From Microscilla marina ATCC 23134 (GTDB taxonomy: Bacteria; Bacteroidota; Bacteroidia; Cytophagales; Microscillaceae), in assembly GCF_000169175.1 (NCBI RefSeq), contig NZ_AAWS01000009.1:124001-188000 (forward strand): a DNA stretch of 64,000 bases, given 5' to 3'. The translations under genes were made by a program, and so were the position numbers. This document shows positions 4,142 through 24,219 of the stretch, piece after piece (the first letter of the stretch is position 1; each line of letters begins with the position of its first letter). The notes beneath the pieces are model-generated. The model saw only the letters and a program-made list of their open reading frames with translations. It searched no databases and was not told where the DNA came from.

Positions 4142-4153
4142 CTCACAAATATG

Positions 4154-5075: not shown

Positions 5076-5081
5076 TTGGCA

Positions 5082-5209: not shown

Positions 5210-5305
5210 TTGCTTCGTTTGCCAAAAGTGAACCAAGTCATAAGCCTGGTTCTGGTTTTGGGTAACGAGTTTAAGTCCTTTCCTACCACTACCTGCCCCT
5301 CTGGA

Positions 5306-6109: not shown

Positions 6110-6154
6110 TTGATAACTCTTTTGTTGTTTTTATTTAATTCTTATGAATGCCTT

Positions 6155-7633: not shown

Positions 7634-7676
7634 GGGTTTTGATCAGTTTTTGAGTGATTATTTTTTGAGTTTTATG

Positions 7677-9413: not shown

Positions 9414-9446
9414 TGCTAATTATTTAAGGTAAATTGAGACAGTACA

Positions 9447-9788: not shown

Positions 9789-9794
9789 TGTTAT

Positions 9795-10262
9795 TTAGTT
9801 TGATGAATTAATTTTTATTTGTTTTAGCATTTGAGATACCACCTTTGCCTGCTCACTAATCTCGTATGTATCTGTGCTATCCAGCAGGCCAAAATGAGTA
9901 AAGAGCTTCTTGGCTTTGGAAGTGAATCCGTAATATGCCACTCTGTTTTTTTGGTAGGGGTGAGACACCAGCAACCCTTGTCTTACTAACCTTTCAAATT
10001 TTTTCTGTATACTTTGTTTGCTGCCAACCCCCAGCGTGGGCAACTCCTGAAGGCACCTGTCGGCACTTAGTTCAAAGTACTCTATCCCAGCCTCCACCAC
10101 CGAAGGGTGACTGCCATCGCATGCCAGGTCGTGTGCCCAGTCCAGAATGACATATTCATCAGTTTTGATACTGATGTTGTTTTCAATGAGGGCTGTCATA
10201 TCGAACCTCATGTGTTTTTTATAGTTGACAGGTGTTGATGTCTGATGATTCATTTGGTACAT
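9795..10262 (-). CDS. Small winged-helix-like paralogue 3
   Basis: A 155-aa protein, the first and most divergent of three tandem paralogues: YKKHMRFDMTALIENNISI, VILDWAHDLA, LPTLGVGSKQSIQKKFERLV, VAYYGFTSKAKKLF. It has about 35 extra C-terminal residues (STDTYEISEQAKVVSQMLKQ) that look helical. It lies 6 bp upstream of the next paralogue, so they are probably co-transcribed. A second ATG at 10253 is an alternative start. Confidence 0.6.
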   Translation of the reverse strand: MYQMNHQTSTPVNYKKHMRFDMTALIENNISIKTDEYVILDWAHDLACDGSHPSVVEAGIEYFELSADRCLQELPTLGVGSKQSIQKKFERLVRQGLLVSHPYQKNRVAYYGFTSKAKKLFTHFGLLDSTDTYEISEQAKVVSQMLKQIKINSSN

Positions 10263-10293
10263 ATTTTAAGTATTGATTAAATCTGTGTTTGAA

Positions 10294-10584
10294 CTACTTT
10301 TTATTTTTCTTTTTCAACCTTCTGGCTTTGGCTGCTGCCTTATTTCTGGCAATACGCCCTGCCCTGATTTGTTCTTCCTGGTCTTTCTTCTCCCGGATAC
10401 GCTCTGCTCTGGCTGCCAGGTAAGCTTTGAGCTTTCGTTTGCTTCGGGCAAGTTTTTTGGGTAGGTAAATCCAGGTGTTGTGGTCTACCTGTACCTTCAC
10501 TTTGTTTTGCAGGTCTTTTTGCCGCTGTTGGGCAAGGAGCTTTGCTTCGCGCTTGTGTTGTTTGGTAATGCTTTCTCTACTCAT
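10294..10584 (-). CDS. Small very basic protein of unknown function
   Basis: A 96-aa protein made largely of Lys, Arg, Ala, Gln and Glu, with basic clusters at both ends (KQHKREAKLLAQQRQKD and AAAKARRLKKKNKK) around a short non-helical stretch (DHNTWIYLPKKLARSK). It is probably helical and nucleic-acid binding. It starts the run leading into the replication genes. No family recognised. Confidence 0.5.
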   Translation of the reverse strand: MSRESITKQHKREAKLLAQQRQKDLQNKVKVQVDHNTWIYLPKKLARSKRKLKAYLAARAERIREKKDQEEQIRAGRIARNKAAAKARRLKKKNKK

Positions 10585-10728
10585 AGCTGGTGCTCTTTAG
10601 GTTTACTACTCAGTATTAGCATTGCCTGTAAAATCAGCCATAGCAGTGGTAGGTTTGCCCACAAGGTATGCGACAAATGATGTATCATTTTTCTTATAGT
10701 TTTTTGTTAGCAGTGTATTTTTACCCAC

Positions 10729-11037
10729 CTAATCTTTCCCACATTGTCCTTTTAGATTGTCCGATTTTCTTTGGAAATGATGGGTTATCTTGGATTCTAT
10801 TTTTGCCTCAAAACTGACCGGAAATTCAAACAAGGAGACTATTTTGCCTTCAAAGACAGCCTCACGAACGGAGAGTTTTTTGGGATACTGGGGCTGAAAG
10901 TCGTGATAAAACAGACTCCCATTGAGGTGCTTTAGATCAGTAATGGTAAAGTACTGAATGTCACTTTCATTCAGTTTTTGCAATACCGTTACCTTTTTTC
11001 TTGTGTGCGGGTTGACTCTTTTTTTCCTCTTTTTCAT
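10729..11037 (-). CDS. Hypothetical basic protein
   Basis: A 102-aa protein with a basic start (KKRKKRVNPHTRKK) and a middle that could be beta-strand (DIQYFTITDLKHLNGSLFYH, EAVFEGKIVSLFEFPV). No family recognised. It is the first gene of the minus-strand replication run, directly downstream of the long hairpin-rich non-coding region that probably holds its promoter. Confidence 0.45.
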   Translation of the reverse strand: MKKRKKRVNPHTRKKVTVLQKLNESDIQYFTITDLKHLNGSLFYHDFQPQYPKKLSVREAVFEGKIVSLFEFPVSFEAKIESKITHHFQRKSDNLKGQCGKD

Positions 11038-12340
11038 TTTTTACTTTGATGTTTGATCTTTAAATATTGAGAGAATATCCTCTTTTGTATGGCTACAGCA
11101 ATGCCGTAGAGTTGCCTGCCCAGAGGGACACACCACCTTACCGAAAGCTATACCAGGAAGCATTTACTCGTGCGTTTGCTTACCCTGAGTAGTCATCGTT
11201 ACATAATGGCAAATAGGTTTGCCAGACTGACACCAGGATGAATGAAGGGATTGAAGATATTGCTTGCCTCTCTTGAACAAGTCGCTGGGGGAATTATAAT
11301 GTTGTTTACTTCATTTGATCATTTGTTAATTTAAGTAAGTAGTTTCTTTCTATTTAATAAGCAGTCGTTTGTGCTGACAATGTTGTTTACCTGTCTGTCT
11401 AGAGAAAAAGGCAAAGGCATGCTACGTGCATGTCTTTGCCCGGAAATATTACAAGGGTCAAACTTGCATTAGATAAGCGCTATCCATGGTACTGTTTGAC
11501 CCTCACATTCAACTAAACTCAGATCATCATTGTCAGGTATTTCACTAAGCCTTCTGCTTAATGAGGATGCAATAGTATGAACAAGAAATAATACAAACAA
11601 GGTTTTTGTTAAAAAACTTCTCTTTTTTGCGTAAAAAACAAGTATTTATACTTGCTTATGTGATAGCTAATATTTTTTTGAAAGAATTTTGAATGTTGAT
11701 GAAAGTTTGGTAAGATTGTACTCAACATAAGGGTTCTTTCGTTCGGGAGATCAAACGTTGCCTGCTTACTGGCAGTGTTTGATTTTGCTTACGACATATC
11801 ATTAGAGCAAAGGCTCCACCTATTTTTCTTGTTTATATAACATCACACGGCTTGCCTGTCAGCAGAATCCCGCTGGCAGGACAGGCTTAAAAGAAACCCA
11901 GAGTTATTTCTTAACTGTATATCAAACTGCTTGATTTGAGGCTGTATGGCGCTTTTATGCCTGGTTTTAAAGCAAGCAGCCACCTTACCACAGGTGTTTA
12001 TTCAGGACTAAAGTATGGCTGTTTGCATACGTTACTGATTTACCTGTGGTCTGGAATGGCTTGGTCTGCCTGTACCGGAAACTGATGTTTCTGTACCAGA
12101 GCCAAAAAACAACCGTTCAGTTTTTTGCGCTGTAGCAGGTGTTTTTTAGGCTAAAGTCCCTGTTTTGGTATGAAAATTTAAATTATCATTTTAGCGAATA
12201 TAATAATTCGCTTGAATAAATGGGAGTGCTATATATATACTTCAAAAGAGTATTATTATTTGATAAATACAATTTTAACAATTTGTTGTATCCGTTTGTG
12301 AATTACAACTACTAAGAGTCGTTTGATTATTTATTTATGC
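11038..12340. other. 1.3-kb non-coding region with a series of hairpins
   Basis: No convincing gene on either strand. Stem-forming pairs seen: 11410-11440 (GGCAAAGGCATG with CATGTCTTTGCC), 11455-11502 (GGGTCAAAC with GTTTGACCC), 11639-11654 (CAAGTATTTATACTTG), 11750-11783 (ATCAAAC..TTGCC with GGCAG..GTTTGAT), 11854-11886 (GCCTGTC with GACAGGC), and 12194-12211 (GCGAAT with ATTCGC) in a very AT-rich patch. Lying between the replication genes and the XRE regulator, it could hold the replication origin, promoters or a structured RNA. Confidence 0.5.
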
Positions 12341-12375
12341 AAAAACCTTTGCTTGTTTCAGGCGAAGGTTTTTTT
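12341..12375 (-). terminator. Rho-independent terminator of the XRE gene
   Basis: A stem with AAAACCTTTGC on one side and GCGAAGGTTTTTTT on the other, 9-nt loop, 12 bp beyond the stop of the minus-strand regulator. T-runs on both sides allow termination in either direction. Confidence 0.7.
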
Positions 12376-12386
12376 ATTGGCATTAC

Positions 12387-12710
12387 TCATTTATTTTTTG
12401 GTAGCTTCTTCAGTATTTGTTCAGCGGCATCCACTTTGGTTTGGGCTTCCCTGAATAAATGAACGGCTTCTTTGAGCAAAGCAGTGGCAGTTCCTTCCGG
12501 GGTTGCCCGGTTCATCAACTCTACCACCGTCAGCCCAAATACCTGCGCAATCTGGGCAATGTCGTCCAGCCCTACATTTTGGGTACGTCCATTTTCAATT
12601 CTTTCATAAGTTTGTTTGCCCCAACCCAGTTTAGTCGCCATTTGTTGGTGGGTAAGCCCCTCACTGGTACGCAAATGCTTAATGATTTTTAGTAAGTCTT
12701 GTTTTTCCAT
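12387..12710 (-). CDS. XRE-family helix-turn-helix regulator
   Basis: A 107-aa protein from the ATG at 12710. The frame stays open upstream to 12839, but that part crosses the operator-like palindromes and is not domain-like. HTH_3 at about 8-63: LRTSEGLTHQQMATKLGWGKQTYERIENGR, then LDDIAQIAQVFGLTVVELM. A helical tail follows (AVHLFREAQTKVDAAEQIL). It is likely an autoregulated repressor, divergent from the membrane-protein gene at 12885. Two matching 15-bp palindromes lie in the shared promoter region. Confidence 0.85.
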   Translation of the reverse strand: MEKQDLLKIIKHLRTSEGLTHQQMATKLGWGKQTYERIENGRTQNVGLDDIAQIAQVFGLTVVELMNRATPEGTATALLKEAVHLFREAQTKVDAAEQILKKLPKNK

Positions 12711-12742
12711 GGGGCTAAAATACCTGCTTTTTCTTTGACACA

Positions 12743-12757
12743 CATCAAGTTTTGATG
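12743..12757. promoter_or_regulatory. Operator-like palindrome 1
   Basis: CATCAAGTTTTGATG: 6-bp half sites CATCAA/TTGATG with a 3-bp spacer, 33 bp upstream of the XRE start codon. It matches a second site at 12805-12819 at 13 of 15 positions. Probably bound by the adjacent XRE protein (inference). Confidence 0.65.
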
Positions 12758-12804
12758 CTTTTTGTTTGTAAGTAGTTACCAAAAGATTACATTTGAATGA
12801 ATAA

Positions 12805-12819
12805 CATCCATTTTTGATG
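12805..12819. promoter_or_regulatory. Operator-like palindrome 2
   Basis: CATCCATTTTTGATG, the second copy of the palindrome, 62 bp from the first and 66 bp upstream of the plus-strand gene at 12885. Two sites about six helical turns apart suit cooperative control of both divergent promoters. Confidence 0.6.
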
Positions 12820-12884
12820 TTAAATGTATTATAAGACATTTAAATATGATGTAATTTACTGATTCACTACCAACTATCTTTACT

Positions 12885-14906
12885 ATGAACAATTCTCAAC
12901 AACTATTACAAAAGATCAAACAGGCACATTCTGCCACCCGGCTTACCACCCAAAATCCTTACGATGAACAACACGAAGTGGCCAAATGGAAAGACCACTA
13001 TGAAAAGGCGCAGCAGTATATGGAGGGCAAGTCTTACCTCGAAAGGCGGTTGGTCTGGTTTAAACTCAGCAAAGGATTCAGGACGTTTTATCACCCGGTA
13101 TCAGTCATACTTGCCTTGGTAACCGCTACCCTGCTGGCCACCCGGCATTTAAAGCTGCACTCACTGGGTCCCACCTCTATCTTTTTGCTCTTACTCACTC
13201 TGGCGTGTTTGCTGGTGATTTTTGGCGCACTCGAATGGGGCAAGAAAGAAAAAGCCACTGATGTGTTTTATCGGCGGGCAAACGGCAGAGCAGTAGCGCT
13301 GGTGCAATGGCTCTACCTTGGTTTACTGGTGTTTGCTTCGCTGCTGGTCAGTGCTTTGGGTGGGGCACTCATTGGCGATGCCCAAACGAATGAGAACAAA
13401 AATATTATGGCGGATAAAGTTCAAGCTGTCCAACAGGTAAAAACCGATCACCAGACACGTTTGCAACAGCTGGCAAAGACCATTGCCGGGCTCGAAAGCC
13501 TGTCGGTAAACCCTAAGGTAAGGCGCTGGGGGCTGACCAAAGCCGAGCAGGAAAACCTGCGGGCGGGCAAAGCAGAAAAAGCAAAACTTGAGCAACAACA
13601 GGCGCAGCAAATTGCCCGGCTTGAGACCCGTTACGGGCAACGTAGCCAAATCAACCATTATTACCGCCACTTAGGAATGGGGATTGGTTTTTCGGTGGTG
13701 CTGATGATGGAACTGTTCCTGATATACGCCTATTACTTTCACAATGCTTTTATGAAACGGGTAGAAGCCGAAGGCAGGCAACACGCTATTTTGCCCCTGC
13801 CCGAAGAAGCTAAAGAAGGAGTATTGCCTCACCAGGAAATCATAACGGCAGTGACTCAGGGTTTACAAACCGGGTTTAGTCAGTTAATCAATGTCTCTGA
13901 TTCAGCCACAGAGTCAGAAGGGCATGATCAAAGAAAGGAAATCAGTTTGCGCCCCAGAGGTAAGCCTGACCCGGTAAACAGGCACGAGTTGCATGACAGT
14001 TTAATGAATAATGATGGTGGTGGTATGAACAAAAGTGGTGTCAAATCAAAAGACAGTCATGACAGTTTAATGGGTGGTATGAACAAAAGCGGTGTCAAGT
14101 CAAAAGACAGTCATGACAGTTTAATGGGTGGTATGAACAAAAGTGATGTCAAGTCAAAAGACTGTCATGACAGTTTAATGGGTGGTGTGAACAATCATAC
14201 AACACCTATGAACAAAAGCAGTGATGTCAAGTCAAAAGGCTGTCATGACAGTTTAATGGATGGTGGTATGAACAAAAGTGATGTCAAGTCAAAAGACTGT
14301 CATGACAGTTTAGTGGATGGTGGTATGAACAAAAGCAGTGATGCCAAATCAAAAGACTGTCATGACAGTTTAATGGGTGGTATGAACAAAAGTGATGTCA
14401 AGTCAAAAGACAGTCATGACAGTTTAACGAGTGATGGTATGAACAAAAGTGGTGTCAAATCAAAAGACAGTCATGACAGTTTAATGGGTAGTATGAACAA
14501 TCATACAACACCTATGAACAAAAGCAGTGGTGTCAAGTCAAAAGACAGTCATGACAGTTTAATGGGTGGTAGTGCTGCTATGAACAATCGTGCAACACCT
14601 ATTGTGGCGAGCAACGGTGTCAAACAAAGCAGAAAAAAAACAGGTCGCAATGGCTATTATATTTCTCCTATTTGTTTTGACCGCTATTATGAAGGACGCG
14701 ATTGTAACGATGAGCCTTACCGCAAGTTGAGGTGGTATGAAACAGTAATACCTGACTTGATGAAAGGGGTGAAGTATGGAGATATTCTGGAAAAGCAATA
14801 CCAGGTCTATGATTTTAGACAAGACAGGTATGTGGTGAAAAACATCAGTGATACCACGCTCAGAAGCACCATTGTAGCCCAATTGAAAAGTCTGGAAAAT
14901 ATGTGA
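12885..14906 (+). CDS. Multi-pass membrane protein with nine tandem MNKS-HDSL repeats
   Basis: A 673-aa protein, no family recognised. Order: hydrophilic N-terminus (1-70), hydrophobic segments near 72-92, 97-116 and 143-165, a coiled-coil-like stretch (about 175-245, rich in Q, K, E), a fourth membrane segment near 253-277, then a hydrophilic region with nine copies of a 17-25 aa unit (MNKSDVKSKDSHDSLMGG type, about 380-570), and a C-terminal domain (about 585-673: GYYISPICFDRYYEGRDCND, LRWYETVIPDLMKGVKYGDI). It is divergent from the XRE gene and likely controlled with it. The repeats may vary in number between strains. Confidence 0.6.
   Translation: MNNSQQLLQKIKQAHSATRLTTQNPYDEQHEVAKWKDHYEKAQQYMEGKSYLERRLVWFKLSKGFRTFYHPVSVILALVTATLLATRHLKLHSLGPTSIFLLLLTLACLLVIFGALEWGKKEKATDVFYRRANGRAVALVQWLYLGLLVFASLLVSALGGALIGDAQTNENKNIMADKVQAVQQVKTDHQTRLQQLAKTIAGLESLSVNPKVRRWGLTKAEQENLRAGKAEKAKLEQQQAQQIARLETRYGQRSQINHYYRHLGMGIGFSVVLMMELFLIYAYYFHNAFMKRVEAEGRQHAILPLPEEAKEGVLPHQEIITAVTQGLQTGFSQLINVSDSATESEGHDQRKEISLRPRGKPDPVNRHELHDSLMNNDGGGMNKSGVKSKDSHDSLMGGMNKSGVKSKDSHDSLMGGMNKSDVKSKDCHDSLMGGVNNHTTPMNKSSDVKSKGCHDSLMDGGMNKSDVKSKDCHDSLVDGGMNKSSDAKSKDCHDSLMGGMNKSDVKSKDSHDSLTSDGMNKSGVKSKDSHDSLMGSMNNHTTPMNKSSGVKSKDSHDSLMGGSAAMNNRATPIVASNGVKQSRKKTGRNGYYISPICFDRYYEGRDCNDEPYRKLRWYETVIPDLMKGVKYGDILEKQYQVYDFRQDRYVVKNISDTTLRSTIVAQLKSLENM
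14025..14570 (+). repeat. Nine tandem 51-75 bp coding repeats
   Basis: Each unit starts ATGAACAAAAG and carries AAAAGACAGTCATGACAGTT or a close variant. Unit length changes only in steps of three bases, so the frame is kept. Two units carry an insert reading NNHTTP and the last a variant NNRATP. Neighbouring units are near-identical at DNA level, suggesting recent expansion or gene conversion. Confidence 0.9.
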
Positions 14907-14911
14907 TAAGT

Positions 14912-14949
14912 AACCCCTGTAGGTAGACCGTCTGTCTACCCCAGGGGTT
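14912..14949. terminator. Strong hairpin between convergent genes
   Basis: AACCCCTG (14912-14919) plus GGTAGAC (14922-14928) pair with GTCTACC (14934-14940) plus CAGGGGTT (14942-14949): a 15-bp stem with one small internal bulge and a 5-nt loop. It lies between the stop of the repeat-bearing membrane protein and the stop of the convergent gene at 14957. Confidence 0.65.
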
Positions 14950-14956
14950 TGGGTGT

Positions 14957-15397
14957 TCAAGTGTTTACTTTTAAAGTCTCTGCGTGTTTTGCCAGTTCTT
15001 TGATTCTATTCAACTCCGGTTTGCCCGCCCCGACCAGGGTAGCCTTGCGAAGTGCCTCTTTTTCGCTGATCTGAAACTTCCGAAACACGGTTTGCCAGGC
15101 GTCAGGGTTTTGCCAATACTCCTGTTCTTTTTCGCTGAGGTTTTCGGCCAGTAAAATCACTACCTGATTGCCTGCGGCAAACAAGCACTCGATGAGTTGG
15201 CGGGTAAAAGCCAGTGGATCAGTGGTAGCCTTGGTTTTATTAGTGGCTTTGCTACCAACTACTGTTTCATTGGCGGTAAGCGATACCACAGGCAGCCCCT
15301 GGCAAGCCGCCCATGCTTCTTTGCCCGAAAAGGGCAGCCCTACGGTACAATATAAGGTAGGGAGTTGCTTTTGTTGTGGTTGTTTCTGTTGATTCAT
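14957..15397 (-). CDS. Hypothetical protein with a P-loop-like motif
   Basis: A 146-aa protein with TLYCTVGLPFSGKEAWA near residues 14-30, which resembles the Walker A of small phage P-loop kinases (GxPxSGK[ST]) but with Glu instead of Ser/Thr after the lysine. The rest is mostly helical and I see no clear Walker B. It is the last gene of the minus-strand baseplate series, so it may be a late phage gene. Function unknown. Confidence 0.45.
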   Translation of the reverse strand: MNQQKQPQQKQLPTLYCTVGLPFSGKEAWAACQGLPVVSLTANETVVGSKATNKTKATTDPLAFTRQLIECLFAAGNQVVILLAENLSEKEQEYWQNPDAWQTVFRKFQISEKEALRKATLVGAGKPELNRIKELAKHAETLKVNT

Positions 15398-15443
15398 AAA
15401 TGTGTTAATTGATTGATCGATCGTCTATTTGTCGGAGTTTTGA

Positions 15444-16718
15444 TTAGATAAAATAAGTGGCAAAAATGCCGAGAAAGTGCATGATGTCACTGTTTTCCAT
15501 ATTACTTATCGTTGGCGGATTTATCAGGTTAAGTTCTGTGTCTGACAAATCAGCTGATATATTACTTGTTATCAGCTGATAAGTATTCAAACGGTCAGCG
15601 GAGCGGTAAATGCCTGTGCTGATCCTTTTGGCAGACTGGGGTATAAACTCCCCATTCATATTAGCAAGTACCCTTACCCTTTGAGGGGAAGACACATCAG
15701 CGAAAGCAAGGTAGCCAAACAAGCTCACTCTGAAAGGGTAGCGGTGTTCTCTAAACTCGACTTCGGCATAGAGCGACTGCTGTAGTTTGGTGTCAATGGC
15801 TTCCTTGATAGGTTGGGCTATTCTTACCCAGGCTTCAAAGTCTGTTTTATCTGCATAGCTGTGTACCGGGAAGTACCTTACCAACCTGCCCTTGGTTTTA
15901 TAAGTTTCTATCCGGATTCTTGGTTCATACTCTTCGTTTGTTGCATACAACTCCTGCACGTTGGCACCTGTTGGTTCATAGCTATCATCCAGGGTTACCT
16001 TGCCCAAAAAGGTGGCGTGTGCAGCAAGCGCCTCTTCTGCTACCAAAAACTCCAGGGCATCCTGCCATTTATTGGGCTGGCAATACATCTGGTATTCCTC
16101 TCCATTATAATGACTGTTGGGTAGTGAATCAGGTGGAGGAAAACTAAGCACAATATCTCCCGCAACCTGCCATTTTTTGCCTTGACAGATTATTTCGGTT
16201 TGGTCGCTCTGGTTGCCAGTCCGCTCTGCATTGAATATGAGACTGTCGCTGAACGGCTTTTTCAGGTCGAAACCTGCCACAATGCCTTCTTCAGTGCCGG
16301 GCATTACCTTGGTGTGCCACAGGTTTTGGTGGAGTATGGTGGCTTGTGTTATTGTATTTACAAGCTTCATTTTCCTGATTTTATGGGGGGCGTGTGCATT
16401 ACCATTGGCATAAATTACAGGGTTGTTTGGGCGACTGGTTTCCTCTATTGCCCAACCATAGTTCTCGGCGTCTGGTACCGACTGAGCCTCTACTTCGAAC
16501 ACCTCGCCGTTGTGGAGTATCAAGCCTGCGGTGGTGGTAGCAAAGCCACTGTCATCTTCGCTAATTTCGCAGCCTTGAAGTATATAGGACTTACTCAAAT
16601 CAAGTCCCAACGCCATAAATACTGCCGCCTGCCCTTCTTGCTGAGCTTCCTGCAAATGGAGCAAATCGTCCAGCGAGTCGGGGTGTCCGCCCGTAATGAG
16701 GTCTAATATTTTTGCCAT
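15444..16718 (-). CDS. Putative phage baseplate/tail-end protein
   Basis: A 424-aa protein after the gpI-like gene, the usual place of tail-fibre or receptor-interaction proteins. Its first 110 residues (EGQAAVFMALGLDLSKSYIL, GLILHNGEVFEVEA, NNPVIYANGNAHAPHKIRKM) resemble N-terminal attachment domains of Bacteroidetes tail proteins. The middle and end are strand-rich (RIRIETYKTKGRLVRYFPVH, FRVSLFGYLAFADVSSPQRV). No signal peptide. The exact role is inferred from position. Confidence 0.5.
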   Translation of the reverse strand: MAKILDLITGGHPDSLDDLLHLQEAQQEGQAAVFMALGLDLSKSYILQGCEISEDDSGFATTTAGLILHNGEVFEVEAQSVPDAENYGWAIEETSRPNNPVIYANGNAHAPHKIRKMKLVNTITQATILHQNLWHTKVMPGTEEGIVAGFDLKKPFSDSLIFNAERTGNQSDQTEIICQGKKWQVAGDIVLSFPPPDSLPNSHYNGEEYQMYCQPNKWQDALEFLVAEEALAAHATFLGKVTLDDSYEPTGANVQELYATNEEYEPRIRIETYKTKGRLVRYFPVHSYADKTDFEAWVRIAQPIKEAIDTKLQQSLYAEVEFREHRYPFRVSLFGYLAFADVSSPQRVRVLANMNGEFIPQSAKRISTGIYRSADRLNTYQLITSNISADLSDTELNLINPPTISNMENSDIMHFLGIFATYFI

Positions 16719-16727
16719 AGTGTGTGC

Positions 16728-17228
16728 TTATTCTTTGGTGATAATTGCATAAACCTTATCGGGTAATTTGTATTTATTAATGAATGCACGAATCTGACGT
16801 TGTTGATCCTCACTCAGTGCTGGAATCTGTACTACAAAATCGTACTCTCCCTGAAATTCGCCCAGCGCATAACTAAACTTTGGGATGATATTTTTTTCGA
16901 TAATTTCGCGCAATGAGTAACGATAATATTGCAAACTGGAGGCTTCGCTGAGGTAATAGATATAGCGGCGATTTCTCTGATACGTTTGGTTGATGATCAC
17001 GATCTCCTGGCTCAGTCCTAACCTTCGGTTGAGCTCTTCTTCGAGCACCATCGTTTGGTTACTGATGGCGATTTCCAGCTGGGTGACCACCCTAAAAGCC
17101 ACAAACTTTGCGTATAAGGTTTTGATGGGGGTAAGCATTACTTGCAGCCAAGCCAAATGCCGTGCTTGCCCCTTTTTGAGGTACGAAGGCACTAGCCAAC
17201 GTACAAATTTGTTCCAGTCAATGGTCAT
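16728..17228 (-). CDS. Putative tail protein in gpI position
   Basis: A 166-aa protein, 13 bp downstream of the baseplate J-like gene. P2 and Mu-like phages place gpI here. Visible: a start WNKFVRWLVPSYLKKGQARH, helices with LEEELNRRLGLSQEIVIINQ, and an ending DKVYAIITKE. Direct similarity to gpI is not obvious, so the call rests on synteny. Confidence 0.45.
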   Translation of the reverse strand: MTIDWNKFVRWLVPSYLKKGQARHLAWLQVMLTPIKTLYAKFVAFRVVTQLEIAISNQTMVLEEELNRRLGLSQEIVIINQTYQRNRRYIYYLSEASSLQYYRYSLREIIEKNIIPKFSYALGEFQGEYDFVVQIPALSEDQQRQIRAFINKYKLPDKVYAIITKE

Positions 17229-17241
17229 GCTTTTACTTATT

Positions 17242-18057
17242 TTATAAAGGAGTTTTTAAAGTGAGGTGATCTTTGAGTGGGTGTGCATTGTCTATTTTTA
17301 CATAGCCCGATTTGGGGATGTACACCCGGTTTACTGGAGTGTAAGTTTCTCCACTTGCCTTTGCTTCAAATAATGTAATGACAACATCTTCTACTCCTGC
17401 CACTGCCTGAACTGCATCCACAATTTTAGATTTCAGTATTTTACCGTCAAAGGGCAGGTTGGCTAAGTGCTGTTTGATAGTGGTTTCTATGCTTGTTTTG
17501 AATGGGGCAGGTTCCAGCAAGGGATTGTAGTATACTTCCAGGCTGAGCCTTGCGATGTCGCCAGGCAAGCTATTAACCAGAATATACGCCCCTGGCGGTT
17601 GGAGACGATCAATGTAGGCTCTGGCCGCTGCCAGTTCGCCTGCCGAAAGTTGCCCCGGCTGTCCGTTCACCGTTTTGGCTACCTTGAGCGTGGCAACGTT
17701 GTCATTGCCGCTGGCCACCGAAATGGCGGCTTGGCTGATGATTTGTTTTTCGGGAGATACCTGGGCATAACCCAGTGCTCCATTTTGATCCCTGACGAGG
17801 TTGTCTCCGTACTGAAATTTTGTTGCCTGTAGCACAAACCATTCTGCCGAGCCAAATATGCTTTGTGCGAGCCGGGCTTCCACTGCTGCCTTGTGTCGGT
17901 CAAAGAGTTGCTCCAGCGTCCAGACTGCCATGGCCACCACATAGAGCCAGAGTCGCCAGATCGCAAAATTAGAAGGAGAGTCCAGGGCATCGAGCTTGGG
18001 TTCAGCAGCCTTGGCCGCCAGCAGTTCGTTGCGTATTTGAGTAAGGGTTCTTGCCAT
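17242..18057 (-). CDS. Baseplate J/gp47-like protein
   Basis: A 271-aa protein. It starts with a helical N-terminus (LTQIRNELLAAKAAEPKLDA), has a central strand-rich part (YGDNLVRDQNGALGYAQVSP, GQLSAGELAAARAYIDRLQP) and ends with the baseplate-J-like ending (KSKIVDAVQAVAGVEDVVIT). The pattern GxAxYxxRxxPxG followed by a C-terminal 'xVAGVxDV' segment is typical of the J/gp47 wedge family. Position between the gpX/gp25 genes and the gpI-like gene agrees. It would build the wedge of a contractile tail. Confidence 0.6.
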   Translation of the reverse strand: MARTLTQIRNELLAAKAAEPKLDALDSPSNFAIWRLWLYVVAMAVWTLEQLFDRHKAAVEARLAQSIFGSAEWFVLQATKFQYGDNLVRDQNGALGYAQVSPEKQIISQAAISVASGNDNVATLKVAKTVNGQPGQLSAGELAAARAYIDRLQPPGAYILVNSLPGDIARLSLEVYYNPLLEPAPFKTSIETTIKQHLANLPFDGKILKSKIVDAVQAVAGVEDVVITLFEAKASGETYTPVNRVYIPKSGYVKIDNAHPLKDHLTLKTPL

Positions 18058-18177
18058 GGTTGTTTGCTTGTATACTTAAACAAAAATGGTTTTGAAGATG
18101 GATTTTGACTAATTGTTTTAATACCAACACTAATCAATCCTGTAAATCCTAAAATCACTTTAATCTTAGTATAGTAT

Positions 18178-18420
18178 TTAATTTCCTGTTTTTACAATTA
18201 CCGCCTGGGGCAACTTATTTTGAAAGTACTTGACTAAGGGCAAGTCACGAATGTCTACTTTATCAGGGTCATACCTGACCTTGGTGCCCGCTGCAATCTC
18301 CTCATCCAGCGAAAGCGTGGGGTTGTCGTCCAGAAGCACAAAAAATGCCTGGGGGTTGCCATAAAGTTGCAGGGCAAGGTCTATGATGTTTTGTCCCTCG
18401 TAAGTAGTATAAACTTGCAT
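18178..18420 (-). CDS. LysM-like tail protein X
   Basis: An 80-aa protein. VYTTYEGQNIIDLALQLYGN followed by LLDDNPTLSLDEEIAAGTKV is a LysM-type fold as in P2 gpX and other small tail proteins that bind the tube or hub. It lies among baseplate genes. The ATG is at 18420; 120 bp of non-coding DNA separate it from the next gene on the minus strand. Confidence 0.7.
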   Translation of the reverse strand: MQVYTTYEGQNIIDLALQLYGNPQAFFVLLDDNPTLSLDEEIAAGTKVRYDPDKVDIRDLPLVKYFQNKLPQAVIVKTGN

Positions 18421-18439
18421 AATATCTATATCGGTGTAT

Positions 18440-18502
18440 CAATCATCGCTTTGCGCCAACCATCAAACCATTAGCGAAGCGAAACCATTTAACCATTTAA
18501 TT
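18440..18502. repeat. Intergenic repeat family, copy A (partial)
   Basis: Shares GCGCCAACCATCAAACCAT and AGCGAAGCGAAACCATTTAA with segments at 42403-42511, 42962-43048 and 44961-45075, all between phage structural genes. See the finding on this family. Confidence 0.6.
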
Positions 18503-18844
18503 ACTCCACCCCGCCTCAATCTGCACCAGTTCGTGCCCTTCTCCCTGGGTCAGGTCAATGCGGACAGATTCTATGGTTTGCCCATCGAGCTCCAGTTGCA
18601 GCTCAATCTCGGCGCGCATCTCGCTCAAATCCCGGTTTTCGTCGCCCAGAAATATGTGTAGCCCAACACCTGCCTGGGGGGTAGCACGCAAATCCCCTTT
18701 GTTTGCCACCAAGTGATGTGCCTGATGCTGTACGGTGGCATCGCCCAAGGCAAAGTCACCGTTTTCAAAAGCGAGGTCTCCATCCACTTCCGAGAGCAGA
18801 ATATCTATCACCTTGCGCCATTTGTTAGGGTCAGTTGTCGCCAT
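18497..18844 (-). CDS. gp25-like baseplate wedge protein
   Basis: A 115-aa protein. FENGDFALGDATVQHQAHHL...GVGLHIFLGDENRDLSEM...VRIDLTQGEGHELVQIEA follows the DUF2634/gp25-like pattern: an early 'G DF..G' segment, a helix, then a short basic or amphipathic end. gp25 links wedge and sheath in contractile tails. It overlaps the spike gene upstream by 14 bp, so the two are probably translationally coupled. Confidence 0.55.
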   Translation of the reverse strand: MATTDPNKWRKVIDILLSEVDGDLAFENGDFALGDATVQHQAHHLVANKGDLRATPQAGVGLHIFLGDENRDLSEMRAEIELQLELDGQTIESVRIDLTQGEGHELVQIEAGWSN

Positions 18845-19529
18845 CGCCGTGCGTTACTTTTTTGTTGATGATCGAATCTTTTAATACCCCGGTCTGTTTG
18901 CCCGCCACAGCTCCCTTGAGGGAGGCTTGCAACGCTGAGGGGCTGCCATTGCCAGGTTCGGGCACGGGGGCACCAGATAGTACCTGAACCAAACCATCCA
19001 GGATTGCCTTGTTCTTGTTCCACTCGGTTTTGAGCTCTTTGATTTTGATCAGTCCACCTGCACTGTCTCCATTGAGCGAAAGCTGATCGGCAGCCAGCTT
19101 CAGGCTCAAATCACCCACTTTCAATTGGTGGGCATCCTGGCTCAGGTTTACTTCCAAATCACCGTTTTTGTAGCTCAAACCTGCTTCGCTCAACTCGGCA
19201 AAGCTGTCTTCGCTAAACCGGATGATAAGCTTTTCTACTTCCCCAAAACTGGTCACATACGCCTCACTTTCCGAGGCTTCGAGCATCGATACAATCACCG
19301 CACTGCCTATTTTGGGAATAAAAACTACCCCGCCAATCACTTCACTGTTTATACTTGCCACCAGACGTACATCGGGCAGGGGAGCCTCACCCCCCAAAGG
19401 CTGCACTTCGCAAGTGCGGGCAACTTCGTCTACCTCTATCACCGTACCCCGGATGTTTTTGCTGTCAGTGGGTAAAGCCTCCATAATCCGCCTGATAGAG
19501 GCAATAAAAGCGTTGATATTTTCATCCAT
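18831..19529 (-). CDS. Baseplate assembly/spike protein gpV-like
   Basis: A 232-aa protein with an OB-fold-like N-terminus: IRGTVIEVDEVARTCEVQPL...LPDVRLVA...GGVVFIPKIGSAVIVSML. This is the gpV/gp5 pattern in which 'G.V..VD....C.V.P..G' is followed by strand-rich repeats. Residues 115-155 hold short strand repeats (LEVNLSQDAHQLKVGDLSLK) that could form a spike helix. The C-terminus is Gly/Lys rich. It would form the tail tip with the hub protein encoded just upstream. Confidence 0.65.
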   Translation of the reverse strand: MDENINAFIASIRRIMEALPTDSKNIRGTVIEVDEVARTCEVQPLGGEAPLPDVRLVASINSEVIGGVVFIPKIGSAVIVSMLEASESEAYVTSFGEVEKLIIRFSEDSFAELSEAGLSYKNGDLEVNLSQDAHQLKVGDLSLKLAADQLSLNGDSAGGLIKIKELKTEWNKNKAILDGLVQVLSGAPVPEPGNGSPSALQASLKGAVAGKQTGVLKDSIINKKVTHGDGDN

Positions 19530-19532
19530 AGT

Positions 19533-20522
19533 TTACTGTGCCCTCCTTCCAATTTTGACGGCTCGCTTGAAGCCCCCGGTTTTGCTGATCGTGGTTTTTA
19601 CTTCATCTACAAAATACAATCCCTCGCGTTCGGGGTAGTCAGCATCCCGGATTTGGCAACGTGCCGAATGCACCACGTGTGGAATGCCCAGGGTTTTGAT
19701 TCCCCCCTTGTAGCCCTCGTAGCGGTACAGCTTGACCTTCTCGTTGGCAATTTTTTGCAAGGTATCCTTGTCCGCAATGGGTTCGGGCGAAATCCAGGTT
19801 CTCAGCTCGCCTTCTTCGCTGCCTGCGTACACTTCCAGTTTTTGATTGTTTTTGAGGTATGAAGTCGCCTTGAGCTTAATCTTGATGTCCTCCTTGCGGC
19901 GATATTCCAACTCGGTAGCAAGTACATTGCGCTGTAAGTCATACACCACAGGTGCTTCATCTACCCCAGTAGTAGCCGCTACATCCTCTGAATAAGGCAA
20001 GCCCACGTACAACTGCTTGCCCCGGAAATACATCGCCAGCCCGTAGTTGTCTTTGAGCTTTTGCAACACTTTGGCGGCGCTGGCATTGGCCACCCGAAAG
20101 GGGGCAAGGGCTACTTCGGGCACCTCTTTGGGGTTCACAAACTCCACCTCAAAGCCTTTTATAGCTTCTTCAATTACTTCCTTCAAAGTGGCGTGCTTCC
20201 AGGTTTTGTTGAGGTTGGAGCGCTGCAAATGGTAGACCTCATCCACACAATGCATCTCGAAGGGTTGGTTGGGGAGCAGCCGGGCAATGTAACCTTTGAA
20301 TTCGGTATGCAACTTACCGTCGTAGCCCAGCTTTATTTCTACTCCATCTCCTTCTTTGAGCTGCTTGTTGAACTGACCCCGTAACCTGCCCAATTTGATC
20401 ACGGCCATATCACCCAGATTTTTCCAGGAACTGGTGATTTCCAGCGAGGTAAAGCTGTCTAACAGGTACTGCGCCCCACCAGCAGCAGGGGTAAATATGA
20501 CTTGGGTGTTGAATGTGAGCAT
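19533..20522 (-). CDS. Tail hub protein, phage late control gpD-like
   Basis: A 329-aa protein with the VgrG/gpD/gp27-like architecture: an N-terminal barrel (FTSLEITSSWKNLGDMAVIK, GDGVEIKLGYDGKLHTEFKG), then the second barrel (FEMHCVDEVYHLQRSNLNKT, the typical 'D....L.+....+.+...T'), a helix with VLQKLKDNYGLAMYFRGKQLY, and an ending on AVKIGRRAQ. Placed directly before the spike gene, as in P2 (U-D-V) or Mu. It forms the trimeric hub under the tube. Confidence 0.75.
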   Translation of the reverse strand: MLTFNTQVIFTPAAGGAQYLLDSFTSLEITSSWKNLGDMAVIKLGRLRGQFNKQLKEGDGVEIKLGYDGKLHTEFKGYIARLLPNQPFEMHCVDEVYHLQRSNLNKTWKHATLKEVIEEAIKGFEVEFVNPKEVPEVALAPFRVANASAAKVLQKLKDNYGLAMYFRGKQLYVGLPYSEDVAATTGVDEAPVVYDLQRNVLATELEYRRKEDIKIKLKATSYLKNNQKLEVYAGSEEGELRTWISPEPIADKDTLQKIANEKVKLYRYEGYKGGIKTLGIPHVVHSARCQIRDADYPEREGLYFVDEVKTTISKTGGFKRAVKIGRRAQ

Positions 20523-20902
20523 GGGGGCAACTTAGCAATGCCCAGGTGGTTTTGGGTAAGAGTTTTTTGGGGGATTGAGGTTTGAGGGGGTGAGGTGTTG
20601 TTTTCTTAAAGAATCAGTCGATATTTTAGCTGTATTGGCAACTTGAATGACCAACGACAACAAACAACATAATAACCACCCTATACACCTCAAAGTCTGA
20701 AATTTTGTGTATATTGAGAGCACAAAAGGTAGTATAATCAATTGACTTGTGAGTAAATCTCTGATAGCCAAACACTTGTAAGGTCTGAAACCCTCTAGAG
20801 CTTTTTACACTATGGGAGGTTTCAGACTTTACAAGGTTAAAAACTTTTGCCTCAACTTTGATTTGAGCCTGTAAATGCTCATTTTTATCCATTATTTCAC
20901 GG
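20523..20902. other. Intergenic region, likely CRISPR leader
   Basis: About 380 bp between the hub gene and the first CRISPR repeat. No convincing gene. It contains the hairpin at 20775-20835. Since the worn last repeat is at the high-coordinate end, the leader and promoter would be on this side (inference). Confidence 0.5.
20775..20835. other. Long inverted repeat in the presumed CRISPR leader
   Basis: An 18-bp arm at 20775-20792 (CTTGTAAGGTCTGAAACC) pairs with 20818-20835 (GGTTTCAGACTTTACAAG) with one mismatch (G-U in RNA) and a 25-nt loop. The distance to the first repeat is 67 bp, the same as one repeat-spacer period. It could be a leader structure, terminator or protein site. Confidence 0.7.
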
Positions 20903-21396
20903 GGCTTAATCGGATCATTTAGAAATTGAAATTTTATAACGGGTCTTGTGCTGCTTTCCCTCCTTGCTGGGCTTAATCGGATCATTTAGAAATTGAAATA
21001 AGGTGCTACCAACCAAGGAGCAGCCACCAGCCACGGCTTAATCGGATCATTTAGAAATTGAAATAGTGTGCACTCGAGTATGTTTCTGTACCCCCTGCAA
21101 AGGCTTAATCGGATCATTTAGAAATTGAAATAACATTGCATCTCGTGTTCACCACTTACCACCAATTGGCTTAATCGGATCATTTAGAAATTGAAATAAG
21201 GTGCTACCAACCAAGGAGCAGCCACCAGCCACGGCTTAATCGGATCATTTAGAAATTGAAATAGAGTTCTTAAAATGGCTTCCCCAGTTGCTATATCAGG
21301 GCTTAATCGGATCATTTAGAAATTGAAATAAACCTGTTATATCCAAAACAAAAGCTATTAGCTTTGGCTTAATCGGATCATTCAGAAATTGACAGC
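20903..21396 (+). CRISPR. CRISPR array, 8 repeats and 7 spacers, no cas genes
   Basis: 30-bp repeats begin GGCTTAATCGGATCATTTAG and end AAATTGAAAT. They start at 20903, 20970, 21035, 21102, 21168, 21233, 21300 and 21366; the last is worn (T to C change and altered 3' end). Spacers are 37, 35, 37, 36, 35, 37 and 36 bp. Ending in ATTGAAAT suits the 8-nt 5' handle of type I-B or III crRNAs, so transcription should run on the plus strand from a leader at 20.6-20.9 kb. The spacers at 21000-21034 and 21198-21232 are identical. No cas gene lies in the window, so the array would depend on Cas proteins elsewhere or be inactive. It sits between the hub gene and the tape-measure gene of a phage. Confidence 0.93.
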
Positions 21397-21576
21397 AGTC
21401 GTCGTGTGTATAAAACTTTTTGGGTGTACTTAAGTATATCATTCAGTGCATCATCCTAAACGTTTTGATTTTACACCTTTCTTTAGCTACCATTTTACCT
21501 CTGTAATTTACCAACCCCTAAACAAATACCCCATACTCTTGCCAAATCCCACCTAGTTTGAAAGCAAAAATGTCCC

Positions 21577-24219
21577 ATGAAAATCTATGAGTTTGCTCTC
21601 AAAATGCGGGACCTGGCAAGTTCCAAAGTGGAAAAGCTAAACAAGCTGGCTGGCAATACCAGGTCTAAGGTAGAACAGCTCGGAGCTCAGGCAAGCAAGG
21701 CAGCGGGCAAGTTTCAGCAACGCTTCCCGGCGGCAAGTCGTGCGGTAGCTGCTGTAGGCAATGCCGTCTCAAGGGTCACCCGTAAAATGGGCAAGCTTCG
21801 TCAGGTAGTGGCTTCGGGGGTGATGGCTGCCTTTAAAGGACTCAAAAAAGCCATGCTTGCTATAGGCGTGGCAGCTACCCTTGCCTTTGGGGTGGCTACC
21901 AAAGAAAGTATGGGCTTCAATGCCCAGATGAGTAGAGTCCAGGCCATCAGTAATGCTAATGCCAAGGAGTTTCAGGTACTCAGAAACAAGGCGCTGGAAA
22001 TGGGCAAAACGACCAGGTTCAGCGCCAGAGAAGCGGGGCAAGGTTTAGAGTATTTGGGAATGGCGGGCTTTTCGGCCAAAGATGCGGCCAGTGCCTTGGG
22101 TGGAGTACTTGACCTGGCGGCGGCTTCGGGAATGGACTTGGGGCGTACCGCCGACATTGCCTCCAATGCCATCTCTGCCTTCGGGCTCAGTGCCAACCAA
22201 AGCGACCGGGTGGCCGATGTATTTGCCAAAACGATTACTTCATCCAACACCAACCTCGAAATGCTTGCCGAGAGTATGAAGTACCTGGCACCCACGGCAA
22301 GGGCTTTGGGGGTAAGCCTGGAAGAATCGGCTTCGGCCATTGGTATTCTGGGCGACAATGGTTTGCAGGGTTCGGTGGCCACCACTACCCTGGCTTCGGG
22401 CTTCAACCGCCTTGCCAAACCCACCCGCCAAATGCGTACCCTGATGAAAGGCTTAGGGATTGAAATGTTTGATGCCAGGGGCAAGTTCAAAGGCATCGCC
22501 GGGATGATTCAGGAACTCAACCGGGTCACGGTAAATATGACCGATCAGCAAAAACAAGCCACCATTGCCACCCTTTATGGTTCTGAGGCCACCAAAAATA
22601 TGCTATCGCTACTCAACGGAGAAAAGAAGCTGAAAATTGATGCGGCCAATGCTACCCAGGTAGCGCTGATGAAGCGACTCATTGGGGAAAAACGTTTGCA
22701 GGCCGCGCTTAAAAAAGGGGGTGAAATCACCCTCAAAGGAGCCGAGGCAATCAAGGGTTATGATATTGTGCTCAATACCGCAGCGGGTACCGCCAGGAAA
22801 ATGGCCAAAACCATGGAAGATAACCTGGCGGGGGATGTGACCAAGGCAAAGTCGGCTTTCAGCGGCTTGATGATTGAAATTGGTGACCGCTTTGACCCTT
22901 TCCTGCGCCGGATGACTCAATCAATGACAGGAGTGCTGAGCAACCTGGGCGAAAACTTCGGAACGTATTACAAAACCCTCAGCGATGCTTTTGCTCCTTT
23001 GCGTAAAGCCTTTGGGCAGTTCAAACGCGATTTGTTGGGGGCACAAGGCAGTCTGGACGATTTTGGCAATGCTTCACTTGGCGTAAAAGAAGTAGTACAA
23101 GGTATTGCCCAGGCAGTCAGCTTTGTTTCTCCTTTTATTGCGACCATGCTCAGCAATATCTCAGGTTTGATCAACCGCCTTGCCACTACCTTTGCCCCCA
23201 TGAAAGATCGTCTTCAGCAACTATTGGGTGGGCTACGCACCAACCTGCTGATGGTTAGCCAGGACGTGTGGAACATTGCGGGCAACCTGATTGGGGCACT
23301 ATCACCCCTGATTGAGGTAGTACTCAACGTGGCAAACACTATTATGGACAACTTTGGGCACATCTGGAAGGCAATTAACGGGGTGGTAAATATGGTATTG
23401 CCTTTTGTCTATCAGCTTGCCGATTCGTTTCGGGCAAACGTAGATGTAGGCGGCTTGCTGGGCAATGTCATGGGAGGAGTCACGGCAGTGATCAATGGTT
23501 TGCGCCCAGTGCTTCGGGTGATTTTACGTCTGCTCACTCCTTTGGGCAAACTCTTTTTGTGGATTGGGGGCATTTTGCTCAAAGTGGTAGGGGTTGCCTT
23601 TGAAGGTTTGGGTAACATTGTGGGCAAAGTATTTGGTGGCATAGGCGATTTGTTCAACTGGTTGATTGACAAGTTTAGCTGGGTGTTCAACAAGATAAAA
23701 CAAGGGCTGCGCCTGATTGGGGTGATGTCGAAAGAAGCAGACAGCGTGAGTCAAAAACAAAAGGATAAAATCCAGCAAGATAAAAAGCCAAAGCCTAAAA
23801 CTATTGCCGAAGAACAACAGGAAAAGGAAGAAAAAGAGCGCAAAAAACGCCTCAAAAAACTACAGGATGAGATAGATACCTTCAACAAAGACCGTAAGAA
23901 AAAAACGGTGGGTACGATGACTGGTGCGGCTTTCAATACCTTGATTACCCCCACTAAACAATCTGGTAAGACCACCACGGCAACCCCGGAGAGCAGCGGT
24001 GGGGCAAGCACCACCAGTGCGAGTGGCATGAACAAAATCACGGGCGGAGGCAGCAAACAGGTCAATATCAATATTACCATTGGCAACATCATCGGCATGA
24101 ACGTAGACAGCATCAACAACCTGGATGCGAAAGGTCAGGAGGTGCAACAATCAGCCGATTTTATTGTACAGGAGATTGTCCGCAAGATCAATGGGGCGAT
24201 GATGGTGCAGGAGGGGTAG
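21577..24219 (+). CDS. Phage tail tape-measure protein (TP901 type)
   Basis: An 880-aa protein. After a helical N-terminus (1-90) and a hydrophobic segment (about 90-106, AMLAIGVAATLAFGVA) comes the tape-measure core: FNAQMSRVQAISNANAKEF, GLEYLGMAGFSAKDAASALG, LDLAAASGMDLGRTADIASN, AISAFGL. Hydrophobic helices lie at about 550-730, a Lys/Glu-rich stretch at 735-790, and a C-terminus with NINITIGNIIGMNVDSINNL. It sets tail length and would span the tube. It is on the plus strand, opposite to every other tail gene here, and separated from the chaperone genes by 17 kb. Confidence 0.9.
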   Translation: MKIYEFALKMRDLASSKVEKLNKLAGNTRSKVEQLGAQASKAAGKFQQRFPAASRAVAAVGNAVSRVTRKMGKLRQVVASGVMAAFKGLKKAMLAIGVAATLAFGVATKESMGFNAQMSRVQAISNANAKEFQVLRNKALEMGKTTRFSAREAGQGLEYLGMAGFSAKDAASALGGVLDLAAASGMDLGRTADIASNAISAFGLSANQSDRVADVFAKTITSSNTNLEMLAESMKYLAPTARALGVSLEESASAIGILGDNGLQGSVATTTLASGFNRLAKPTRQMRTLMKGLGIEMFDARGKFKGIAGMIQELNRVTVNMTDQQKQATIATLYGSEATKNMLSLLNGEKKLKIDAANATQVALMKRLIGEKRLQAALKKGGEITLKGAEAIKGYDIVLNTAAGTARKMAKTMEDNLAGDVTKAKSAFSGLMIEIGDRFDPFLRRMTQSMTGVLSNLGENFGTYYKTLSDAFAPLRKAFGQFKRDLLGAQGSLDDFGNASLGVKEVVQGIAQAVSFVSPFIATMLSNISGLINRLATTFAPMKDRLQQLLGGLRTNLLMVSQDVWNIAGNLIGALSPLIEVVLNVANTIMDNFGHIWKAINGVVNMVLPFVYQLADSFRANVDVGGLLGNVMGGVTAVINGLRPVLRVILRLLTPLGKLFLWIGGILLKVVGVAFEGLGNIVGKVFGGIGDLFNWLIDKFSWVFNKIKQGLRLIGVMSKEADSVSQKQKDKIQQDKKPKPKTIAEEQQEKEEKERKKRLKKLQDEIDTFNKDRKKKTVGTMTGAAFNTLITPTKQSGKTTTATPESSGGASTTSASGMNKITGGGSKQVNINITIGNIIGMNVDSINNLDAKGQEVQQSADFIVQEIVRKINGAMMVQEG

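What the first reader, a model, noticed from the sequence alone, without database searches (positions are those of the whole stretch)
20903..21396. cas-less CRISPR array inside a phage tail region
Eight 30-bp repeats sit between the tail hub gene and the tape-measure gene. No cas genes are within 20 kb on the left or 40 kb on the right. A phage-borne mini-array could use host Cas proteins against rival phages or steer host immunity. The worn terminal repeat and ATTGAAAT end fix the orientation.
Basis: partly seen in the sequence, partly recalled or inferred. Interest (0 to 1): 0.8.

Follow-up and report, generated by a model that had tools for sequence, protein, structure and literature searches.

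The report
Stripped phage-borne CRISPR array, Microscilla
A small CRISPR memory cassette sits between two phage-tail genes, most likely because a whole element-borne CRISPR-Cas immune system once occupied that spot and later lost its protein genes, leaving the guide list behind.

Summary
The array is real: 7 identical 30-bp repeats plus a worn eighth at 20903-21395, between a baseplate-hub gene and a tape-measure gene (TMP). The genome (genus Microscilla by its closest named relative) holds five close copies of this phage-like element. A second copy, 132 kb away, carries an 18-repeat array at the same spot. In a sister species that spot holds a type I-D CRISPR-Cas system: leader1-array1 (59 repeats, mostly T18) - WYL - cas6 - cas10d - csc2 - csc1 - cas3d - cas4-cas1-cas2 - leader2-array2 (62 repeats, all C18) - TMP. 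Both cas-less arrays join the leader1 side to the array2 trailer (208/210 identical for the second copy), and ours switches from T18 to C18 at its last repeat. I conclude that crossover between the flanking arrays looped out the cas operon. Other copies of the spot are empty or hold other cargo, so the gap looks like a cargo slot. No convincing spacer target was found, and the searches found no type I-D effector here beyond a 36-residue Cas10d scrap. Related host Cas6 proteins and 22-23/30-similar host repeats leave processing in trans possible but unshown.

The parts
20903..21395 (+). CRISPR array: 7 identical repeats (T18) + degenerate C18 terminal repeat; 7 spacers, 6 distinct
20523..20902 (+). 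leader and hub-proximal stretch, homologous over its whole length to leader1 of the sister type I-D locus and to the leader of the second array
   Evidence: to leader1 297 identities, 66 mismatches, 22 gaps
20775..20835 (+). 18-nt inverted repeat (25-nt loop) in the leader; also in copy B, where one pair is changed on both sides; core visible in both sister leaders in the alignment
21396..21576 (+). trailer, homologous to the trailer of array2 (not array1) of the sister I-D locus: deletion-junction side
   Evidence: 164 identities, 37 mismatches, 7 gaps to array2 (terminal repeat included); to array1 only 25 aligned nt, within the repeat
19533..20522 (-). baseplate hub gene (gpD-like)
   Evidence: phrog_4930 3.8e-69
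21577..24219 (+). tape-measure gene, divergent from the hub; A's similarity to the other copies ends at about its stop codon (B and C4 share some sequence beyond it)
   Evidence: PF10145 8.1e-52
18831..19529 (-). putative spike/gpV-like gene (name by position, recalled; only family match phrog_27270, unknown function, 5.7e-9)
   Evidence: position
18497..18844 (-). putative gp25/W-like baseplate gene (by eye and position, no family hit)
   Evidence: no hit; position
18178..18420 (-). putative gpX/LysM-like tail gene (by eye, no family hit)
   Evidence: no hit; position
17242..18057 (-). baseplate J-like gene (Pfam match weak, below cut-off)
   Evidence: phrog_38413, unknown function, 1.3e-45; PF04865 E 0.0053
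15444..17228 (-). two further genes (166 aa and 424 aa) without family hits, present in copy B
201..1487 (+). integrase of the element
   Evidence: phrog_1 6.3e-39
3136..4011 (-). Rha/anti-repressor-like regulator
   Evidence: phrog_373 8.5e-30
4154..7633 (-). three DnaB-like helicase ORFs (4154-4891, 5306-6109, 6155-7633)
   Evidence: phrog_243 / phrog_19
12387..12839 (-). HTH repressor-like gene
   Evidence: PF13560 6.1e-13; phrog_8
1..24219 (.). element copy A (begins about 370 bp left of the window, C9:123629-148219)
   Evidence: homology with copy B, C9:255691-281557

Best explanation
The array is the residue of a type I-D CRISPR-Cas system carried as cargo in the gap between the hub and tape-measure genes of an integrating phage-like element of Microscilla. 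In the cas-bearing form two same-direction arrays flank the cas operon, array1 (T18 repeats) next to the hub and array2 (C18 repeats) next to TMP. Homologous recombination between repeats (copy A) or in the leader/first repeat (copy B) looped out the cas operon, leaving one hybrid array: leader1 and array1 head joined to array2 tail and trailer. In this genome the array seems to have no effector of its own. It most likely persists as an inert or low-activity relic; it could act only if a host Cas6 (I-B at C46, or the separate Cas6-family gene at C21) and a host effector use its crRNAs in trans. Shown: anatomy, the cas-bearing homologue, the hybrid junctions, and no Csc2 and only a Cas10d scrap in the genome searches. 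Inferred: direction (loss rather than gain), recombination as the route, present inactivity.
For: Same hub/TMP site: array in copy A, array in copy B, I-D locus in sister species G007:C83 (Cas5d 3.6e-21, Cas7d 1.1e-28, Cas10_Id 1.6e-8, I-D Cas3 1.1e-37, plus Cas6, Cas4, Cas1, Cas2). Position-18 markers: array1 T18 in 57 of 59 repeats, array2 C18 in 62 of 62; A = 7 T18 then one C18, B = 18 C18. The leaders of A and B align over their whole length to leader1 but only over 120 and 125 nt to leader2; the trailers match array2 (B 208 of 210; A 164 identities, 37 mismatches, 7 gaps) and not array1 beyond the repeat. This genome shows only the first 36 residues of Cas10d (C68, 81%), no Csc2, and no Cas6 closer than 36% to the I-D one. 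The site varies: of 7 close copies 3 carry CRISPR, 2 are about 160 bp with no array, 1 has other cargo and 1 cannot be read.
Against: No shared spacer links A, B and the sister arrays (apart from A_2 = A_5 only matches of up to 17 nt), so the sister arrays are not the direct parents. Only one cas-bearing copy is known, so polarity rests on one genome. The sister's cas1, cas2, cas4 and cas6 match I-B rather than I-D models best. Repeats in A (7 of 7) and B (17 of 17 before the worn last ones) have not decayed, which would also fit continued use; zero changes in 720 sites bounds decay since the loss at about 0.4%. Tape-measure sequences are mosaic between copies, so exchange between copies could also have moved array parts. 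Recombination was not observed directly, and both genomes are drafts.
Confidence: 0.72

Rival explanations
1. Element-borne guide cassette used in trans: after losing its own cas genes the array is transcribed, cut by a host Cas6 (I-B at C46 or the Cas6-family gene at C21), and loaded into a host effector against rival phages or elements.
For: Host C46 and C45 repeats match 22 and 23 of 30 positions; for C46, 15 of the first 22, reached by 3 of 100,000 shuffles. C46 Cas6 is 33% and C46 Cas1 58% identical to the sister I-D locus proteins; another Cas6-family gene (36%) is at C21. Repeats in A and B are undecayed; a leader inverted repeat is kept. A cas-less Listeria array acts with cas genes in trans (PMC3886909, abstract).
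Against: No convincing spacer target in the collections searched. Repeats are not identical to those of the host systems. A Cas6 of a related family need not cut this repeat, and I-B effectors may prefer their own 5' handle (inference). No expression data.
Confidence: 0.18
2. Gain, not loss: an array-only cargo was ancestral and the cas operon entered later in the G007 lineage.
For: Array-only copies outnumber the cas-bearing copy 2 to 1.
Against: Array2 has its own leader and array1 its own decayed terminal repeats and a different trailer. An insertion into one array would not by itself produce the T18/C18 segregation plus the T18-to-C18 switch of A. This genome keeps a Cas10d scrap elsewhere.
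Confidence: 0.06
3. Assembly chimera: the assembler jumped between two arrays and dropped a real cas operon.
For: Both genomes are draft assemblies (135 and about 760 contigs), and array repeats invite such jumps.
Against: Csc2 was not found and Cas10d only as a 36-residue scrap in the whole 98%-complete assembly; two copies would both have to be wrong, at different crossover points.
Confidence: 0.04

Closest known systems
Subtype I-D CRISPR-Cas (cas10d/csc2/csc1/cas3d)
   Same: the sister locus at the same site has the I-D gene set and this repeat
   Different: the window copy has no cas genes; the cas-bearing locus lies in a phage-like element of a Bacteroidota genus, its cas1/2/4/6 match I-B models best, and its Cas10d matched none of 395 genomes drawn from the class except this genome's scrap (few candidates per genome were scored)
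Virus-borne CRISPR mini-arrays (archaeal portogloboviruses; review PMC11656645, passages seen)
   Same: cas-less array inside a virus-derived region
   Different: mini-arrays are described with 1-2 spacers, the host's own repeat, and spacers mostly against related viruses; here 7 and 17 spacers, repeat only 22-23/30 like the nearest host ones, no convincing targets, and a cas-bearing homologue at the same spot
Cyanophage N-1 CRISPR array (PMC4916379, abstract seen)
   Same: a CRISPR array on a phage, related to a repeat family common in its hosts
   Different: N-1 is an isolated phage whose array is transcribed during infection; here an integrated element without recognised head genes and no expression data
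Listeria RliB orphan array (PMC3886909, abstract seen)
   Same: array without adjacent cas that could rely on cas in trans
   Different: RliB is never beside cas genes and depends on PNPase; here a cas-bearing form is known and the arrays sit in a phage-like element

Membership tests
CRISPR array | direct repeats of near-constant length separated by unique spacers of similar length | tested here: met
   8 repeats of 30 nt, spacers 35-37 nt, one spacer present twice
CRISPR array | conserved leader at one end, degenerate repeat at the other | tested here: met
   21366-21395 has 3 mismatches
CRISPR array | spacers match mobile elements | tested here: inconclusive
   no convincing match for 6 of 6 distinct spacers; best weak hits 27/37 to spacer 1 and 24/36 to spacer 7; viral contigs tested only by exact 20-21-mers
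Subtype I-D CRISPR-Cas system (window locus) | cas10d, csc2, csc1, cas3d present | tested here: not met
   Cas10d and Csc2 searched over the whole genome: only a 36-residue Cas10d scrap on another contig; csc1 and cas3d were not searched
Subtype I-D CRISPR-Cas system (sister locus G007:C83) | cas10d, csc2, csc1, cas3d, cas6, cas4-1-2 with arrays | tested here: met
   the Cas10d match is weak (1.6e-8) and cas1/2/4/6 match I-B models best, but Cas5, Cas7 and Cas3 match I-D models
Virus-borne mini-array for inter-virus conflict | repeat identical to that of the host CRISPR system | tested here: not met
   22/30 to C46, 23/30 to one C45 repeat, 16/30 to C8 and 15/30 to C20; no array was found beside the C44 type III genes
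Virus-borne mini-array for inter-virus conflict | spacers target related viruses | tested here: inconclusive
   no convincing targets in the collections searched
Complete prophage | head, terminase, portal and tail genes | tested here: inconclusive
   integrase, regulators, helicases and baseplate/TMP found; no head gene recognised, but several ORFs have no family hit and a few short ones were not scanned; sheath hits only on other contigs

The most novel reading that the evidence does not exclude
A family of tail-gene-bearing integrating elements uses the hub/TMP gap as a swappable defence slot. It can turn an autonomous type I-D system into a guide-only cassette by array-array recombination, and the guides are then served by the host's I-B or other Cas6 and effectors, so that element and host share one memory.
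Probability: 0.13. Interest if true: 0.8.

Novelty: new variant of a known kind. Interest (0 to 1): 0.5.

Why it matters
How cas-less arrays on mobile elements arise usually has to be guessed. Here a cas-bearing form, two cas-less derivatives with different junctions, empty sites and a swapped cargo are all seen at one spot in two related species, with a repeat polymorphism that marks the crossover. It gives a concrete, testable route from a complete element-borne CRISPR-Cas system to an orphan array, and points to the hub/TMP gap as a cargo slot in Microscilla elements.

Tried and rejected
Spacer-target search: array A against phages and plasmids (no match), 57 related genomes, exact 20-21-mers of all 6 distinct spacers against viral contigs (0 of 6). 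One search reported matches in 9 of 57 genomes: this one, the sister, and 7 with weak hits at E 5e-5 to 0.01 per genome, most touching repeats; a few touch spacers, but the best whole-spacer fits in the seven loci checked are 27 of 37 (spacer 1) and 24 of 36 (spacer 7), so I do not count them. Array B against phages gave one 26-nt hit at E 0.3, not credible; sister array1 against phages none. Array B and sister array1 were not searched against plasmids or viral contigs; sister array2 was searched against neither collection.

A resemblance of spacer A_2 to B_17 looked striking, but over 19,740 pair comparisons its score (11.0) barely exceeds the next best (10.0), so I dropped it.

The repeat pattern gave 0 matches in viral contigs and only the sister's contig in genome contigs (the tool notes that the window's own record may be left out). 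Distant hub homologues: 23 loci, read up to about 1.5 kb on each side, 0 with an array by a simple exact-18-mer finder. (Csm6 HEPN family) was uninformative: its control rang nowhere.

Literature: the listings showed no title or abstract start that reports a type I-D system or array in such a tail element; they cover open-licence papers only, and most listed papers were not opened.

Full report
What is there. The window lies on contig C9 (124001-188000) of a 9.77-Mb, 98%-complete draft genome. Its closest held relative, G007, is in the same genus; G007's contig C83 (37,643 bp) corresponds in number and length to NZ_CANLRP010000083.1, titled "Uncultured Microscilla sp.". Microscilla is in the phylum Bacteroidota. 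The array consists of 8 repeats of 30 nt, seven identical and the last with three mismatches, with spacers of 35-37 nt and spacer 2 equal to spacer 5. The repeat, up to 3 mismatches, occurs 26 times in the genome and its reversed control never: 8 copies here and 18 in a second array at C9:277589-278740.

Surroundings. To the left on the minus strand are a baseplate hub (phrog_4930), a J-like baseplate gene and other tail-module genes; to the right on the plus strand a tape-measure gene. Further left are an integrase, an anti-repressor, DnaB-like helicases and an HTH repressor. Several small tail genes I named by eye and position only. No capsid, portal, terminase or sheath was recognised among the ORFs scanned; the two sheath-family hits in this genome lie on other contigs. 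Copy B, 132 kb away, is the same element from C9:255691 to 281557. Tail genes differ between copies A and B mainly at third codon positions (hub 97 of 129 differences, tape measure 227 of 305), consistent with purifying selection. To the right of the tape measure lie host-type genes (RND efflux pump, P-type ATPases).

A cargo slot. A hub search found 5 close copies in this genome (A, B, C4, C16, C39) and 2 in G007 (C83, C325), plus distant homologues. The hub-tape-measure gap holds: an 8-repeat array (A), an 18-repeat array (B), a CRISPR-Cas locus (G007:C83), about 160 bp without array (C4, C325), and other cargo of about 4.9 kb including an S24-type repressor (C16); C39 ends in the gap. By the hub region the copies fall broadly into two groups (A, C4, C16, C39 against B, C83, C325), each with members with and without CRISPR. 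The tape measure does not follow this grouping: in several 250-nt blocks A resembles B and C83 (87-94%) while C4 and C16 are far off (57-73%), so the copies are mosaics. Among 23 distant hub loci none has an array within about 1.5 kb.

The cas-bearing form. G007:C83 reads hub - leader1 - array1 (59 repeats) - WYL regulator - cas6 - small ORF - cas10d - csc2 - csc1 - cas3d - cas4 - cas1 - cas2 - leader2 - array2 (62 repeats) - trailer - tape measure. The Cas10d match is weak (1.6e-8) but Cas5, Cas7 and Cas3 match I-D models; cas1, cas2, cas4 and cas6 match I-B models best, so the locus may be a I-D effector with a I-B-like adaptation module. In 395 genomes drawn from the class the Cas10d found only this genome's own 36-residue scrap (G007, which would have matched, was evidently not drawn, and few candidates per genome were scored).

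The hybrid junction. Position 18 of the repeat separates the arrays: T in 57 of 59 array1 repeats (the two C are its last two), C in 62 of 62 array2 repeats. Copy A has seven T18 repeats and then a C18 terminal repeat; copy B has 18 C18 repeats. Both A and B have the full-length leader1 on the hub side, while leader2 shares only its proximal 120-125 nt; both have the array2 trailer (B 208 of 210 identical to the sister's; A 164 identities, 37 mismatches, 7 gaps), with no similarity to the array1 trailer beyond the repeat. This is what crossover between the two arrays predicts, with different crossover points in A and B. I infer loss rather than gain because array2 carries its own leader and this genome keeps a Cas10d fragment, with a lone repeat about 1.3 kb away, on C68. 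No spacers are shared between A, B and the sister arrays, so the sister locus is a relative of the parent, not the parent.

Does it still work? Own effector: Cas10d scrap only, no Csc2. The genome has two type I-B systems with their own arrays (C46, C8), type III genes (C20, C44), and a further Cas6-family gene at C21 with no array in the 20 kb read, whose neighbours I did not scan. The C21 and C46 rows flag stop codons inside the match; the ORFs are 261 and 263 aa, and the stops probably fall where the query's first residues extend upstream of the real start (inference). The C46 repeat matches the element repeat at 22 of 30 positions, 15 of the first 22 (3 of 100,000 shuffles reach this); C8 16 of 30. 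C46 Cas6 is 33% and C46 Cas1 58% identical to the sister-locus proteins. So cross-processing is possible but unproven. Repeats in A and B show no internal decay; zero changes in 720 sites bounds neutral divergence since the loss at about 0.4%, meaning recent loss, selection or gene conversion. No convincing spacer target was found; phages of such hosts are probably thinly sampled (my judgement).

Known systems. The review PMC11656645 (passages) describes virus-borne mini-arrays with one or two spacers and the host's repeat; this array fails the identical-repeat test. Cyanophage N-1 carries an array transcribed during infection (PMC4916379, abstract), and Listeria RliB shows that an array can act with cas in trans (PMC3886909, abstract). 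Arrays on mobile elements and orphan arrays are therefore known kinds; what seems unusual is a type I-D system as tail-module cargo in Microscilla and the visible junctions that point to how cas was lost. The literature listings I ran did not show this case.

Verdict. Observation confirmed; interpretation partly supported; origin by loss of an element-borne I-D system is well supported, present function open.

Noticed in passing
L031:7236-7372 and 7907-8029 (C9:255236 and 255907) and C9:123824-123948 left of element A: tRNA-like sequences at the left ends of elements A and B with inserts of 29-62 nt (ARAGORN with introns allowed; none found without) sharing a motif; Rfam tRNA 43.6 bits for the first. 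Too short for group I introns (recalled knowledge).
   Followed up: partly
L113 / G007:C83:27025-27118, opposite strand: Two-repeat mini-array between cas6 and the cas10d operon; the first 17 nt of its spacer recur at C83:26920-26936 just upstream of the operon's first ORF, an arrangement like CreR-type autoregulatory guides (name recalled; listing only).
   Followed up: partly
window 20775-20835 and L024:15181-15241: 18-nt inverted repeat in the array leader, with one pair changed on both sides in copy B; possible site of a regulator (WYL?) or integration factor.
   Followed up: partly
L088:8891-9430 (G000:C45): Another 8-repeat array (one repeat ATATTAATCGCACCATATAGGAATTGAAAT) with no obvious cas gene in the 14 kb read (judged by eye from ORFs of 120 aa or more); repeat family like C46 and the element.
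   Followed up: partly
G000:C68 (L069:12099-12200, 13484-13508) and G007:C58 (L086:2133-2224): Remnants of another CRISPR locus with the same repeat: a Cas10d N-terminal scrap and lone repeat in G000, a two-repeat remnant in G007, sharing the same downstream flank by eye.
   Followed up: partly
G007:C28:61440-62276 (L121): A second Cas6 in the sister genome, 73% identical to the I-D Cas6, about 2 kb from an array with a different, 37-nt repeat; one Cas6 type may thus serve different repeats.
   Followed up: partly
L051:7697-10453 (G000:C16): After the tape measure of copy C16 lies a 918-aa gene with a weak SH3 match and a C-terminus that looked toxin-like by eye.
   Followed up: no
window 13992-14602: In-frame repeats inside the 673-aa plus-strand ORF (SKDSHDSLMGGMNKS-type units), variable between element copies.
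   Followed up: no
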